From positions 1 through 23,381 of IMG/VR virus record IMGVR_UViG_3300035698_015889: a stretch of DNA of 23,381 bases; one strand, written 5' to 3'. Source of the DNA: a virus. Positions 38 through 13,349 of the stretch are shown piece by piece. Below the pieces are notes generated by a model. That model saw only the letters and a list, made by a program, of their open reading frames with translations, searched no databases and was not told where the DNA came from. The translations under genes were made by a program, and so were the position numbers. Numbering within the stretch: position 1 is the stretch's first letter; each line of letters opens with the position of its first letter.

Positions 38-550
38 ATGGGTAAAGATCATCCTAATGTAACACATGGACATTCATTAAAGGGTAAAAAAACAGATATC
101 TATCAATGTTGGGAAAACATGAAAAGAAGATGTAATTATCCCAAAAGCCCTTCTTACAAGAACTATGGCGCACGCGGCATTAAGGTCTGTAAGCGCTGGG
201 ATAAGTTTGAAAACTTCCTTGCAGATATGGGAGAACCACCTAAAGGGCTTACTATAGATCGGATTGATAATGATGGGAATTATGAAACCTCTAACTGTAG
301 ATGGGCAACATCTAGCGAGCAAGCATTTAACAGAAGAAAACGTGCACTAAAACATAGCAAATATATGGGTGTTTCTTGGAGCAAGGGAAGAAATAAGTGG
401 CAAGTACAGATAACAAAAAACAAAAAGCATATTAGTTTAGGGCGATATGAAAGTGAAGAAGATGCTGCCGAGTGTTATGATATGGCCAGGTATCTGTTGT
501 TAAACTTAAGGGACTGCCCTAACAGAAAAATAAGAAATGCTACAACTTGA
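38..550 (+). CDS. HNH homing-type endonuclease with AP2 DNA-binding domain
   Basis: A 170-residue protein that probably nicks or cuts DNA and may spread itself as a free-standing homing endonuclease. The N-terminal half carries the phage HNH pattern: YQCWENMKRRC near residue 22, then YGARGIKVCKRW, then LTIDRIDNDGNYETSNCRW near residues 71-89, including the D-N-C-W positions typical of this family. Residues about 107-155 look like an AP2 domain (KYMGVSWSKGRNKWQVQI, followed by a LGRYESEEDAA-type segment), a pairing common in phage homing enzymes. The start has a good SD (GAGGAG) upstream. The 3' end overlaps the terminase start by 14 bases, which suggests either precise insertion or coupled expression. 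HNH proteins beside terminases sometimes assist packaging, but the AP2 domain favours the homing reading. Confidence 0.9.
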   Translation: MGKDHPNVTHGHSLKGKKTDIYQCWENMKRRCNYPKSPSYKNYGARGIKVCKRWDKFENFLADMGEPPKGLTIDRIDNDGNYETSNCRWATSSEQAFNRRKRALKHSKYMGVSWSKGRNKWQVQITKNKKHISLGRYESEEDAAECYDMARYLLLNLRDCPNRKIRNATT

Positions 551-10062: not shown

Positions 10063-10087
10063 GGGGGCTTGACCAGCCCCCTTTTTT
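10063..10087 (+). terminator. Rho-independent terminator of the head operon
   Basis: GGGGGCT at 10063-10069 pairs with AGCCCCC at 10075-10081 around a 5-base loop, followed by six Ts at 10082-10087, 31 bases after the tail tube stop. On the minus strand the hairpin is not followed by a T-run, so it should stop plus-strand transcripts only. Confidence 0.88.
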
Positions 10088-10090
10088 ATT

Positions 10091-11188
10091 TTAGAGAATG
10101 TTAAGCCACGTGTCGCACAGCATCCTACACGAATCGCTACCGAACAAGGATGGATTATCTTGAAAATCTATAGCATATAAATCTGAGTTATCGGTAACTA
10201 TAAAGTTGTGGAGCATAGCGTCTTCATGATTATAATCTTTCATGACTGCCATCTGACGGCGAAGCTTTGAGCGATCATAAAATTGCAACATGGAGAACCT
10301 TAGGATTTCAGACAAAAGCATTCCCTCTATTTTCTTTGATATCTTATGATCGCTACCATCTGACTTTATAAAGTAATGGTCGTTAGTGCCTTCTTTTATA
10401 GCATAATAATAGTTCTTCTCTGTCTTTAGCATTACAGGATCGTCAAGCTCATCAACGTCAAGCCTTGGAAGCCCGAACTCTAAGTAAGGTGTGTGCCAGT
10501 TATCATAGGCTATATACTTTTCACCATTCACAAAAACATCTTTCTTTATCTTCCTGACAAGCTGATACATTGGGCGATAAGTGTTCATATGGGTCCTATG
10601 AACTCCGATTAACCTTATATTATATTCAAAGCATGTGGCCTTATCAAGCTCATGCTTCCAGTGCATATAGGGGTTACCATCGCACTTAATATTCTTTCCA
10701 AAGTAGCCCCACTCCTCATGTGTTGCCATCTCTACATAAATAACTTTAGCCCACTTTGATACCTTACTTAAAGAGCAATCTTGTTCAAACTTTGTGCCCC
10801 TAGTATAATGATGCAAGATGCTAAGGAATAAGTAAGCTTGGGTTTCAGGCAAATTATCCCTAAAGTCTTTATTCAAGAAAGAAATATTTTTAATATTATG
10901 AACATCTTTTATTTTATTGGACACTGCAACACAACTTTGGTCAGTATCAACACCCCAATGCTGACTAGGATTGTTTTCTGCTAACTTAAAAAGAAAATAC
11001 CCGAAGCTAGAACCAGCATCAGTAATAGAATAAGTGGATAACCTGTTACCATTAAAAGCTGCATCGGCTGTGAGAATAGTTTTAATTCTATCGTCGCACC
11101 TTCTAAGGCCATCATTTTCTTGACCCCATATTGGCTGGTAATTTTCTGCTACATTAAATTTCTTTCCATCAATATTTACAGTTATCAT
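10091..11188 (-). CDS. Methyltransferase-kinase fusion resembling the O-antigen capping enzyme WbdD
   Basis: A 365-residue bifunctional-looking protein. Residues 1 to about 215 form an S-adenosylmethionine methyltransferase: motif I DAGSSFGYF at 57-65, acidic loop GVDTD at 79-83, SILHHY near 123-128, and a closing RPMYQL at 205-210. Residues about 225-365 look like a small kinase domain: lysine K275 in HYFIKS, glutamate E288 in KKIEGM, catalytic loop HEDAMLHN at 321-328 (H-x-D-x4-N spacing), then AIDFQD at 339-344 as the metal-binding DFG-like site. WbdD, which caps polymannose O-antigen with methyl phosphate, has the same domain order but is about twice as long, with a C-terminal coiled coil absent here. 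This is the last gene of the minus-strand operon (SD AGGGG). Function as a glycan cap is inferred; a kinase of other substrates is possible. Confidence 0.75.
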   Translation of the reverse strand: MITVNIDGKKFNVAENYQPIWGQENDGLRRCDDRIKTILTADAAFNGNRLSTYSITDAGSSFGYFLFKLAENNPSQHWGVDTDQSCVAVSNKIKDVHNIKNISFLNKDFRDNLPETQAYLFLSILHHYTRGTKFEQDCSLSKVSKWAKVIYVEMATHEEWGYFGKNIKCDGNPYMHWKHELDKATCFEYNIRLIGVHRTHMNTYRPMYQLVRKIKKDVFVNGEKYIAYDNWHTPYLEFGLPRLDVDELDDPVMLKTEKNYYYAIKEGTNDHYFIKSDGSDHKISKKIEGMLLSEILRFSMLQFYDRSKLRRQMAVMKDYNHEDAMLHNFIVTDNSDLYAIDFQDNPSLFGSDSCRMLCDTWLNIL

Positions 11189-11199
11189 TTTAACCCCTA

Positions 11200-11451
11200 T
11201 TAATCACAATTAAACTCTCTCTTTATTCTCTTTACTAAGCCTTTAATAGTTGTTTCTCCAGCGGTTTCAATTATTTCCACTACTCTAGCTATCTCCCACC
11301 TATCATTCCAAGCGTTAATAGTTTTTTGCTTAGCTTCACCCTCTACGAAAATATCACATCCACTACAATATATTTCATAGTATTTATGCACACCATTAAA
11401 TTCTATCTCCGGTGCTGTTCCACAAAAAGGGCAAGCGCTAAGTTTGCTCAT
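11200..11451 (-). CDS. Lar-like zinc-ribbon protein 1
   Basis: An 83-residue protein with C7-x2-C10 (ACPFCGTA) and C29-x2-C32 (CSGC), then INAWNDR at 45-51. This is the Lar restriction-alleviation family pattern: CPFCG, a second CxxC, then A-x-x-x-WN-R. Lar-like proteins are common in phages; the founding member modulates type I restriction, but most are uncharacterised. The ATG follows the lipoprotein stop by 2 bases with no SD of its own, so it is likely made by reinitiation. The 30 C-terminal residues are a charged helix (KGLVKRIKREF). Confidence 0.75.
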   Translation of the reverse strand: MSKLSACPFCGTAPEIEFNGVHKYYEIYCSGCDIFVEGEAKQKTINAWNDRWEIARVVEIIETAGETTIKGLVKRIKREFNCD

Positions 11452-11453
11452 AG

Positions 11454-11792
11454 CTAGTCATTTATACATGCGGCATCAACAACATTCTTTGCAATCTCAA
11501 CCATGTTATTAGAGTTAACAAGTAATATTTCAGCACCCACTAGAGTTGCTTGTGCTCCATTTAAAACTTTCTTTGCATTCTCACAATTCAAAGGGTTTGC
11601 TTTAGCACCACATAATGATTCAACTAACATATTGGCTCCGTTATAACCAACCTTTGCATTATTAAGCACTAGTGTTGCTTTCTCTAGGCCATCAGTAACC
11701 TTTATAAGCCTCTCCCTAGCCTTATCACATTTTGTTTTCTCTTCATGACATGCAATTACAATTAAAAATAAAACTACCAATAGATACTTCAT
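11454..11792 (-). CDS. Small phage-encoded lipoprotein
   Basis: A 112-residue protein with a lipoprotein signal: MKY, hydrophobic LLVVLFLIVI, then lipobox VIAC with the lipid cysteine at C15. The residue after it is His, not Asp, so sorting to the outer membrane is expected. The mature part is helical with four further cysteines (C22, ESLC, LNC, AAC), an even number that would suit two disulfides in the periplasm. Small phage lipoproteins such as T5 Llp act in superinfection exclusion by blocking receptors. That role is inferred here from type, size and location. It overlaps the upstream zinc-ribbon gene by 4 bases (ATGA) and has SD GGGAGG. Confidence 0.75.
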   Translation of the reverse strand: MKYLLVVLFLIVIACHEEKTKCDKARERLIKVTDGLEKATLVLNNAKVGYNGANMLVESLCGAKANPLNCENAKKVLNGAQATLVGAEILLVNSNNMVEIAKNVVDAACIND

Positions 11793-12073
11793 ACATCCTC
11801 CCTTAAAAGTTTATCTAACTCACTAAACAAATTACAGATATCAACCTGACATGATGTCTCTACATTCTCATAGGAGTGTTTAACAATTAAGTCTCTAACA
11901 TTTCCCATGAAAATCTTTTGTCCTTCTTTATTATTCCATGCCTCTAATGCAATATCCTTATCTCCTCGTTCAATATTTAACCCACACTTAGAGCAAATAA
12001 TTCCTTCATTGTCCCTGGCAGAAATAAAACATGCAGTATTACCGCACAACTTACAATTACTTATATTATCCAT
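11789..12073 (-). CDS. Lar-like zinc-ribbon protein 2
   Basis: A 94-residue protein with C7-x2-C10 (CKLCG), C27-x2-C30 (CSKCG) and EAWNNK at 44-49, the same plan as the Lar-like gene nearby but too divergent for a recent duplicate. The C-terminal half is helical (MGNVRDLIVKHSYENV, then DICNLFSELDKLL). It overlaps the glycosyltransferase gene by 8 bases and the lipoprotein gene by 4, a fully coupled arrangement. Function unknown; a zinc-binding regulatory or anti-restriction role is possible. Confidence 0.65.
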   Translation of the reverse strand: MDNISNCKLCGNTACFISARDNEGIICSKCGLNIERGDKDIALEAWNNKEGQKIFMGNVRDLIVKHSYENVETSCQVDICNLFSELDKLLREDV

Positions 12074-13349
12074 TGAACCTCTTCATTAAAATATTAAATT
12101 CATTAAATACTTTATCAACCGTTGGGTGACATTTAAGTGGTTCATATTTAGCAAGTTCTGCAACTAATACATTGTAATAAAACTCTAATCTATTAATACA
12201 CTCTGGCTTAAGTGCTTTAAGATCCGCTTCAGTAATAAGCTTATAGTTCAAAAGAATATTCTCAATCTGATATTTGTTATAGTTAACATCATTATTAATA
12301 TCATTAAGAAGCTTTTTATAAAGCCTTACCCTAGAGCAAGTGTCAAGATTGGTTCTCTCAGTAATGAACTTTAAGTTACAGGTGCAGGAGCATTCTGAAT
12401 CTATAGCTCTGAACTTATAACCCTTAACACCGCTTCTTACTGGCAACCTATATCTTGAGTTAACTACTGTGAAGATCCCAAGCACTGGAAGTTCCTTTGT
12501 ACAGCCAGCCATATGGATCGGTGCTGTGTCCATAGTTATTAAAGCCGCTGCGTTCTTATGATCCATGAGAGCTACAGTCTCAAGTATTGGTAGCTTGTTA
12601 TACATGACGATGGTTCCACTGAACTCAGAAAAGTTTTTCATTTCTTTTACATTCCTACTACCACCTATGCAAACAAGCTTGTAATCAGGATAAGCCTCCT
12701 TAACCCTACCGATTAACTCTTTCCAGTTCTCGTTATCCCATGTTCTAGTTTTCCACTCGGCTCCATAGGGATGTAGTAGAATAAACTTATCCTTCTCAAG
12801 GTCTAGCTGATTATTCTTGCACTTCCTAACCATGTTATCTTTTTCAACATATGTATAAGGAACATTATACTCACAGCTTTCTACAGGGAGTTGTTTTCTT
12901 ATGGAACTATTAGCTACAAACTGAACACCGTCAAAAGTCCAGTGCCAAGGGATATTAGGAGCATTAGTTTTCCAAGCATCGATAAACATATCGTACCTAT
13001 CAAACATTCTCCCTGTTATTTTAGGATCGTAAACAAGGGCGTGCCTTACATCAGTATTATATTTAAAGATTTCAGGAAACATTGTTATCACATCAATAGA
13101 AGCCTTCGGATAGAGCCTCTTAAGCTCTCTTATAGAAGGTGTCGCAGTAATAGTGTCACCAATACTCCAGCAGCTTAGGTGAAAACAAATCTGCATTTCT
13201 TCTTCTCTGTTATAGAAGCTTCTACACTGTTTATGGCCAAGACCGTTGCTACCATAAGAAAGCGGCCCTGATTCTTTTCCATCATCATTAAGTAATCTCT
13301 CTCCGCAATAACAGCAAGCACTGTCTAGTGAAATTTCCTTATCACTCAT
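12066..13349 (-). CDS. Glycosyltransferase family 9 (heptosyltransferase-like) with N-terminal zinc finger
   Basis: A 427-residue enzyme likely to transfer a sugar in LPS or another surface glycan. GT9 marks: SIGDTITATPSIRELKRLYP at 62-81 (the G-D-x3-x-P acceptor side), LLHPYGAEWKTRTW near 191-204, KLVCIGG at 224-230 and ITMDTAPIHMAG at 271-282, matching the D-T/S-x2-x-H nucleotide-sugar loop. Residues 12-42 form a CxxC (C12, C15) and HxxC (H39, C42) zinc-finger-like unit, not usual in heptosyltransferases. A cysteine cluster (C320, C322, C324, C338) lies in the C-terminal part, and the last 90 residues are helical. It has SD GGGGGAG and overlaps the next gene by 8 bases. The exact sugar and acceptor cannot be told from sequence. 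Confidence 0.85.
   Translation of the reverse strand: MSDKEISLDSACCYCGERLLNDDGKESGPLSYGSNGLGHKQCRSFYNREEEMQICFHLSCWSIGDTITATPSIRELKRLYPKASIDVITMFPEIFKYNTDVRHALVYDPKITGRMFDRYDMFIDAWKTNAPNIPWHWTFDGVQFVANSSIRKQLPVESCEYNVPYTYVEKDNMVRKCKNNQLDLEKDKFILLHPYGAEWKTRTWDNENWKELIGRVKEAYPDYKLVCIGGSRNVKEMKNFSEFSGTIVMYNKLPILETVALMDHKNAAALITMDTAPIHMAGCTKELPVLGIFTVVNSRYRLPVRSGVKGYKFRAIDSECSCTCNLKFITERTNLDTCSRVRLYKKLLNDINNDVNYNKYQIENILLNYKLITEADLKALKPECINRLEFYYNVLVAELAKYEPLKCHPTVDKVFNEFNILMKRFNG

What the first reader, a model, noticed from the sequence alone, without database searches (positions are those of the whole stretch)
10091..11188. Phage-encoded methyltransferase-kinase fusion like the O-antigen cap enzyme WbdD
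The sequence shows an N-terminal methyltransferase (DAGSSFGYF, GVDTD) joined to a C-terminal kinase with all key positions in order: K275, E288, HEDAMLHN and IDFQD. WbdD of E. coli O9a has this order and ends O-chains with methyl phosphate. A compact phage version beside a GT9 gene suggests a way to cap or stop host O-antigen growth. The kinase domain is short and the WbdD coiled coil is missing, so the partner and target are open.
Basis: partly seen in the sequence, partly recalled or inferred. Interest (0 to 1): 0.85.

Follow-up and report, generated by a model that had tools for sequence, protein, structure and literature searches.

The report
Phage mini-WbdD methyltransferase-kinase
A divergent tailed phage carries a cut-down relative of WbdD, the bacterial enzyme that stops O-antigen chains by adding a methyl-phosphate cap, so the phage may be able to cap or reshape the sugars on its host's surface.

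Summary
The 365-aa minus-strand ORF at 10091-11188 is real and lies in a minus-strand gene cassette inside the tail region of a tailed-phage contig. It is a homologue of the catalytic module of WbdD (E. coli O9a). A WbdD-family HMM gives 69.5 bits, a profile alignment 98.7-99.4% over 314-344 columns. An alignment-guided AlphaFold2 model matches WbdD across both domains (Z 24.2 over 338 residues; next-best, methyltransferase-only, 16.5). Every methyltransferase residue whose mutation kills WbdD is kept (Y17, H126, H127, R205), as are the kinase Asp, Asn and metal Asp (D323, N328, D341). The C-lobe stops 24 residues after the metal Asp (40 relatives: 81 or more), and there is no coiled-coil ruler. 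No other WbdD-type protein was found in phage records or IMG/VR. Best reading: it adds a methyl-phosphate (or only a methyl) to a terminal sugar of a host surface glycan, altering or ending it. Homology is strong; substrate, kinase activity and biological role are inferred. Verdict: a new, phage-borne, ruler-less variant of a known enzyme.

The parts
10091..11188 (-). ORF, 365 aa: WbdD-like methyltransferase-kinase
   Evidence: WbdD-family HMM 69.5 bits; hhalign 98.7-99.4%; VIA-align Z 24.2 to WbdD 4azt over model 5-365
10559..11188 (-). N-terminal class I SAM methyltransferase domain, residues 1-210
   Evidence: Pfam Methyltransf_31 E=1e-6; family HMM 61.6 bits for this half; pLDDT mostly above 80
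11138..11140 (-). Y17, equivalent of WbdD Y16 (Y16F kills methyltransferase activity)
   Evidence: invariant alignment column; mutant data PMC3482155
10994..11020 (-). SAM-binding motif DAGSSFGYF, residues 57-65
   Evidence: aligned with WbdD DLGCAQGFF
10808..10813 (-). H126-H127, equivalents of WbdD phosphate-site H132-H133
   Evidence: H126 in 40/40 and H127 in 37/40 relatives; H132A and H133A kill methyltransferase activity
10565..10576 (-). RPMY, residues 205-208; R205 is the equivalent of WbdD R203
   Evidence: Arg in 39/40 relatives; R203A kills methyltransferase activity
10094..10564 (-). C-terminal compact kinase-like domain, residues 209-365
   Evidence: kinase-half hhalign 89.4%; residues 290-340 pLDDT about 80, 216-249 and 273-281 under 50
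10205..10228 (-). Catalytic loop HEDAMLHN, residues 321-328 (D323 = WbdD D351, N328 = N356)
   Evidence: Asp and Asn in 40/40 relatives; D351A kills kinase
10157..10171 (-). Metal-binding IDFQD, residues 340-344 (D341 = WbdD D369)
   Evidence: Asp in 40/40 relatives; Gly of DFG replaced by Gln
12066..13349 (-). GT9 (heptosyltransferase-like) glycosyltransferase in the same minus-strand cassette, with a Cys-rich N-terminal extension
   Evidence: Pfam Glyco_transf_9 E=2.2e-9, 37.4 bits against cutoff 22; below cutoffs of all named heptosyltransferases
11200..12073 (-). Three small genes between them: Lar-like Zn ribbon 11200-11451, putative lipoprotein 11454-11792, Zn-ribbon-like 11789-12073
10063..10081 (+). 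Terminator-like hairpin between the plus-strand tail gene and the convergent minus-strand cassette
   Evidence: 3 such sites found, 2.2 expected by chance; weak on its own
21943..23067 (+). Wzy_C-like membrane protein (O-antigen ligase/polymerase family, sub-threshold)
   Evidence: Pfam 26.8 bits against cutoff 31.7; 7 hydrophobic segments

Best explanation
The protein is a phage-borne, shortened homologue of the catalytic module of WbdD. Most likely mechanism: in the infected or lysogenised cell the kinase domain puts a phosphate from ATP on the non-reducing terminal sugar of a host surface glycan (O-antigen, or an outer-core chain to which the phage's GT9 may add a sugar), and the methyltransferase domain methylates that phosphate. 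The methyl-phosphate end can no longer be extended. Without a coiled-coil ruler the reaction would not be tied to chain length, so the expected result is shorter or altered chains, that is, receptor masking or superinfection exclusion. Shown here: homology over both domains and conservation of catalytic residues. Inferred: kinase activity, glycan substrate, chain termination, benefit to the phage.
For: BLASTP to WbdD 25% identity over 208 residues, pairwise E=3e-6, local score z=11.3 against shuffles. Family HMM from 42 sequences (one search lists 42 rows): 69.5 bits, kinase half alone 11 bits against 4.0 for the best of 400 shuffles. hhalign 98.7-99.4%. Structure: top five Foldseek hits are all WbdD entries; Z 24.2, 338 residues, against 16.5 for the next. 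Residues that PMC3482155 shows to be essential (Y16, H132, H133, R203, D351) and the Mg ligands N356 and D369 are all kept. WbdD W355 is His here; W355H in WbdD keeps about half the activity, and two relatives also have His. Coiled-coil truncation shortens chains in WbdD (PMC5082667). GT9 and Wzy_C-like genes lie in the same contig.
Against: No assay and no host is known. The N-lobe is reduced (R205 to hinge Gly 84 residues, family minimum 95) and the C-lobe ends 24 residues after D341 (family minimum 81), so the kinase may be weak or dead; WbdD without its bundle helix (WbdD459) is severely attenuated. The Mg ligand E274 and the beta-3 Lys have no sure counterpart. No wzm/wzt or mannosyltransferase genes in the contig. 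The structure model was guided by a WbdD-family alignment, so its match to WbdD is not independent evidence. The single-sequence model failed (pLDDT 33).
Confidence: 0.5

Rival explanations
1. The kinase half is degenerate or only structural, and the protein works as a sugar methyltransferase alone, as E. coli O8 WbdD does (methyl cap without phosphate).
For: Shortened N- and C-lobes; DFG Gly replaced by Gln; low model confidence at 216-249, 273-281 and 351-357. MTase-only relatives with YQP and HH motifs exist (L067, L068).
Against: D323, N328 and D341, invariant in 40/40 relatives, are kept on a very long branch, where an unused kinase would be expected to lose them. The phosphate-site residues H126, H127 and R205 are kept, whereas the O8 enzyme, which lacks the kinase, has no equivalent of them (PMC3482155).
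Confidence: 0.22
2. The enzyme, with GT9, builds or caps a glycan on the phage's own virion or modifies a core-LPS sugar added by GT9, rather than terminating a host O-antigen.
For: GT9 is in the same minus-strand cassette; the cassette sits inside the tail gene cluster; no O-antigen export genes in the window; GT9 enzymes typically act on LPS inner core (general knowledge).
Against: No signal in the data links the cassette to virion proteins; the Wzy_C-like gene points to host polysaccharide (sub-threshold).
Confidence: 0.18
3. It is an unrelated methyltransferase with a chance kinase-like tail.
For: No Pfam, NCBIfam or PHROG kinase match. Other methyltransferases can score 30-82 bits on the WbdD-family HMM, so the MTase score alone is not specific.
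Against: Kinase half alone beats all 400 shuffles and reaches 89.4% in profile alignment against at most 18.6% for shuffles; HxDx4N plus DF with family spacing arises in 0.07% of tail shuffles; RPMY with R203 equivalent present and absent in L067/L068.
Confidence: 0.05
4. A bifunctional enzyme with a non-glycan target (protein, nucleic acid or small molecule), recruited from a WbdD-like ancestor.
For: Very long branch (about 8 changes per site), loss of the substrate-selecting C-terminal elements, E274 region not conserved.
Against: Glycan genes in the cassette; methyl-phosphate site residues kept.
Confidence: 0.05

Closest known systems
WbdD of E. coli O9a / K. pneumoniae O3 (PDB 4azs, 4azt, 4azv, 4azw, 4ax8, 4uw0)
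   Same: Domain order methyltransferase then kinase; SAM residues R36 and D82; phosphate-site Y16, H132, H133, R203; kinase D351, N356, D369; W-x-PY linker with Y230 equivalent (Y235) by alignment; fold over both domains (Z 24.2).
   Different: 365 aa against 708; smaller N-lobe; C-lobe cut after the activation segment; no bundle helix, coiled coil or membrane/WbdA-binding tail; phage gene, not in a wzm-wzt O-antigen cluster; 20-25% identity.
WbdD of E. coli O8 type (methyltransferase without kinase)
   Same: WbdD-type methyltransferase.
   Different: O8 enzyme lacks the kinase and the H132/H133/R203 equivalents (PMC3482155); the phage protein has all of them.
K. pneumoniae O7 ORF6 methyltransferase-kinase (PMC11231755)
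   Same: Bifunctional methyl-phosphate terminator in methyltransferase-kinase form.
   Different: Its kinase differs from WbdD in sequence and structure, while the phage kinase matches WbdD. Not compared directly here.
Legionella Lcin_0519 and Lani_1194/NoeA kinase-methyltransferase families (PMC9758233)
   Same: Bacterial fusions of a kinase and a class I methyltransferase, predicted to decorate surface or signal glycans.
   Different: Described as remotely related and clearly different from WbdD; the phage protein matches WbdD. Not compared directly here.
Serotype-converting phage genes (gtrABC, D3 oac; reviewed in PMC11436027)
   Same: Phage-encoded change of host O-antigen that blocks further phage adsorption: the role proposed here.
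   Different: Those glucosylate or acetylate repeat units; none is a methyl-phosphate end cap.

Membership tests
WbdD (catalytic module) | N-terminal class I methyltransferase followed by C-terminal eukaryotic-like kinase in one chain | tested here: met
WbdD (catalytic module) | SAM residues R36 and D82 | tested here: met
   R34 and D81, both 40/40 in the family
WbdD (catalytic module) | Phosphate-methylation site Y16, H132, H133, R203 | tested here: met
   Y17, H126, H127, R205
WbdD (catalytic module) | Kinase D351, N356, D369 | tested here: met
   D323, N328, D341
WbdD (catalytic module) | Kinase N-lobe: beta-3 Lys, Y230, helix-C E274 | tested here: inconclusive
   Y235 aligns with Y230; Lys and E274 cannot be assigned; region 216-249 and 273-281 pLDDT under 50
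WbdD chain terminator | C-terminal bundle helix, coiled-coil ruler and membrane/polymerase-binding tail | tested here: not met
   protein ends 24 aa after D341; family minimum 81, median about 320; no continuation in other frames
WbdD chain terminator | Gene in an ABC-transporter O-antigen cluster with wzm, wzt and polymerase | tested here: not met
   phage structural genes around it; contrast with plasmid-borne WbdD loci L002 and L003
WbdD chain terminator | Phosphorylates and methylates the terminal O-PS sugar, ending the chain | not testable with these tools
   needs enzyme and LPS assays
GT9 heptosyltransferase (neighbour gene) | Pfam Glyco_transf_9 above its gathering score | tested here: met
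   37.4 bits against 22; no named heptosyltransferase equivalog cutoff reached
Lcin_0519, Lani_1194 and O7 ORF6 methyltransferase-kinases | Sequence and fold match better than to WbdD | not tested
   sequences were not at hand; literature only

The most novel reading that the evidence does not exclude
Phages have captured the WbdD capping reaction and stripped off its ruler: a free-standing methyl-phosphate capping enzyme that ends host O-antigen or core glycan chains early, a new chemical route to receptor masking and superinfection exclusion, with the smallest kinase of the family.
Probability: 0.35. Interest if true: 0.8.

Novelty: new variant of a known kind. Interest (0 to 1): 0.6.

Why it matters
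Known serotype-converting phages mostly glucosylate or acetylate repeat units. A methyl-phosphate end cap would be a different way to alter a receptor, acting on chain ends and chain length. A ruler-less WbdD also offers a natural test of which parts of WbdD are needed for catalysis: the literature says that removing the bundle helix nearly kills the O9a enzyme, so an active phage protein would show how the kinase can work without it. I found no earlier report of a phage-borne WbdD in the open literature searched.

Tried and rejected
Single-sequence AlphaFold2 gave pLDDT 33 and was discarded. phmmer of the protein against PDB gave only chance hits (nuclease S1, 2A protein). Close relatives were sought and not found in phage records, plasmids, IMG/VR and GTDB contigs with the single sequence, with two-family alignments, and in about 1,150 sampled whole genomes of four phyla. 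An IMG/VR scan seeded with a bacterial WbdD relative returned 8 loci that hold 227-231 aa methyltransferases without kinase. These scans need short conserved patterns, so a divergent viral relative could be missed. Capsid and terminase searches gave no close relative and no host. A tree of methyltransferase domains does not place the phage protein: branch of about 8 changes per site, neighbour support 80/73. A frameshifted longer kinase was considered and rejected: no continuing kinase sequence in the other frames downstream. K275/E288 as the Lys/Glu pair was considered and not accepted because E288-G289 fits the hinge motif.

Full report
What is there. The ORF at 10091-11188 on the minus strand is intact and codes for 365 aa. 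The window is the whole of an IMG/VR record (23,381 bases, linear, probably a fragment). It holds terminase, portal, Mu-like protease, major capsid and tape-measure genes, so it is a tailed phage; its capsid matches known phages at 30% identity or less, and no host could be named. The ORF is the last gene of a minus-strand cassette that interrupts the plus-strand tail genes: GT9 glycosyltransferase (12066-13349), a Zn-ribbon-like protein, a putative lipoprotein, a Lar-like Zn ribbon, then the fusion. GC skew flips over the same stretch, as expected for reversed genes.

Methyltransferase half. Pfam finds Methyltransf_31 at E=1e-6. Against WbdD of E. coli O9a (sequence checked against PDB 4ax8/4azs) BLASTP gives 25% identity over 208 residues, pairwise E=3e-6, and the local score is 11.3 standard deviations above shuffles. 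I fetched 56 WbdD-family loci from bacterial genomes and built a family HMM; this half scores 61.6 bits. The score alone is not specific: MTase-only proteins from two sampled genomes score 76-82 bits and ordinary phage methyltransferases about 31-33. What is specific are the residues: Y17, R34, D81, H126, H127 and R205 stand where WbdD has Y16, R36, D82, H132, H133 and R203. PMC3482155 reports that Y16F, H132A, H133A and R203A lose methyltransferase activity, and that the three positive residues form the phosphate site that O8-type WbdD, which has no kinase, lacks.

Kinase half. No library names it, but the WbdD profile does: about 11 bits for this half alone against 4.0 for the best of 400 shuffles, and 89.4% in profile alignment against at most 18.6% in 60 shuffles. 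The catalytic loop HEDAMLHN aligns with WbdD HDDVRPWN and IDFQD with IDFGS, with the same spacing of 13 residues between Asn and Asp. D323, N328 and D341 are the residues found in 40 of 40 relatives. WbdD W355 is His here, a change that in WbdD costs about half the activity. An HxDx4N...DF pattern arises in 0.07% of shuffled tails.

K275 and E288 cannot be accepted as the lysine-glutamate pair. IEGMLLSEIL (287-296) aligns with the hinge LPGRLLSDML, followed in both by DR[ES]K at nearly the same distance. The alignment-guided model places helix C at 251-265. The stretch 216-249 and the residues around K275 have low confidence, so the N-lobe lysine and glutamate stay open. From R205 to the hinge Gly the phage has 84 residues, the family 95-111; after D341 it has 24, the family 81 or more. 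No lost continuation is present in other frames.

Structure. A single-sequence model failed. With 40 family sequences the model reaches mean pLDDT 76.7 and pTM 0.64. Foldseek's five best PDB matches are all WbdD entries. VIA-align gives Z 24.2 over 338 residues (rmsd 5.3) to 4azt, covering model 5-365, and 16.5 for the best other chain, which covers the methyltransferase only. The alignment used is made of WbdD relatives, so this is consistency rather than independent proof.

How it most likely works. By homology: ATP-dependent phosphorylation of a terminal sugar, then methylation of the phosphate, which stops extension. In WbdD the coiled coil sets chain length, and shortening it shortens chains (PMC5082667); removal of the bundle helix severely weakens the kinase (PMC3482155). 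The phage enzyme has neither, so it either works without them, has a partner, or has a weak or lost kinase. The GT9 gene of the cassette and a Wzy_C-like membrane protein at 21943-23067 (sub-threshold) make host surface glycan the likeliest target. Phages that alter O-antigen to exclude others are well known (PMC11436027); a methyl-phosphate cap would be a new chemistry for that role. All of this paragraph after the first sentence is inference.

Relation to known families and novelty. It is homologous to the WbdD catalytic module but fails two features of WbdD as a chain terminator: the ruler and tail, and the O-antigen export cluster. I therefore file it as a new variant, not as a WbdD. Other methyltransferase-kinase families (Legionella Lcin_0519 and Lani_1194, K. 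pneumoniae O7 ORF6) are described as different from WbdD and were not compared directly. No second viral WbdD was found in 50,697 phage records or in pattern-seeded scans of IMG/VR; these scans can miss divergent relatives. A tree cannot place the protein, so its origin is unknown.

Noticed in passing
window 21943-23067 (+): Membrane protein with 7 hydrophobic segments and a sub-threshold Wzy_C (O-antigen ligase/polymerase) match, after the putative tail fibre gene; GC drops to 0.31 there. Possibly a second surface-glycan gene of the phage.
   Followed up: partly
window 11200-11451 and 11789-12073 (-): Two small Zn-ribbon proteins, the first above Pfam's cutoff for Lar (restriction alleviation), flank a small putative lipoprotein (11454-11792).
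   Followed up: no
window 12066-13349 (-): The GT9 protein carries a Cys/His-rich N-terminal extension of about 50 residues (CCYCGERL...HKQC) before the GT domain.
   Followed up: no
window 38-550 (+): AP2-domain protein (Pfam E=2.6e-9) just upstream of the terminase; resembles mobile HNH-AP2 endonucleases.
   Followed up: no
L067, L068: Methyltransferase-only proteins (231-251 aa) with the WbdD-like YQP and HH motifs but without R203/RPMY and without a kinase: a standalone sister type.
   Followed up: partly
BFVD K7YUZ4 (Megavirus) and A0A5K0UC94 (Yasminevirus): Giant-virus methyltransferase proteins align with the phage model over 363 and 355 columns, at high rmsd; their C-terminal parts might be checked for a kinase.
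   Followed up: no
L014, L055, L056, L059: WbdD-family matches longer than the open frame at the start of the match, which suggests broken copies; L014 and L055 are from Sodalis symbionts.
   Followed up: no
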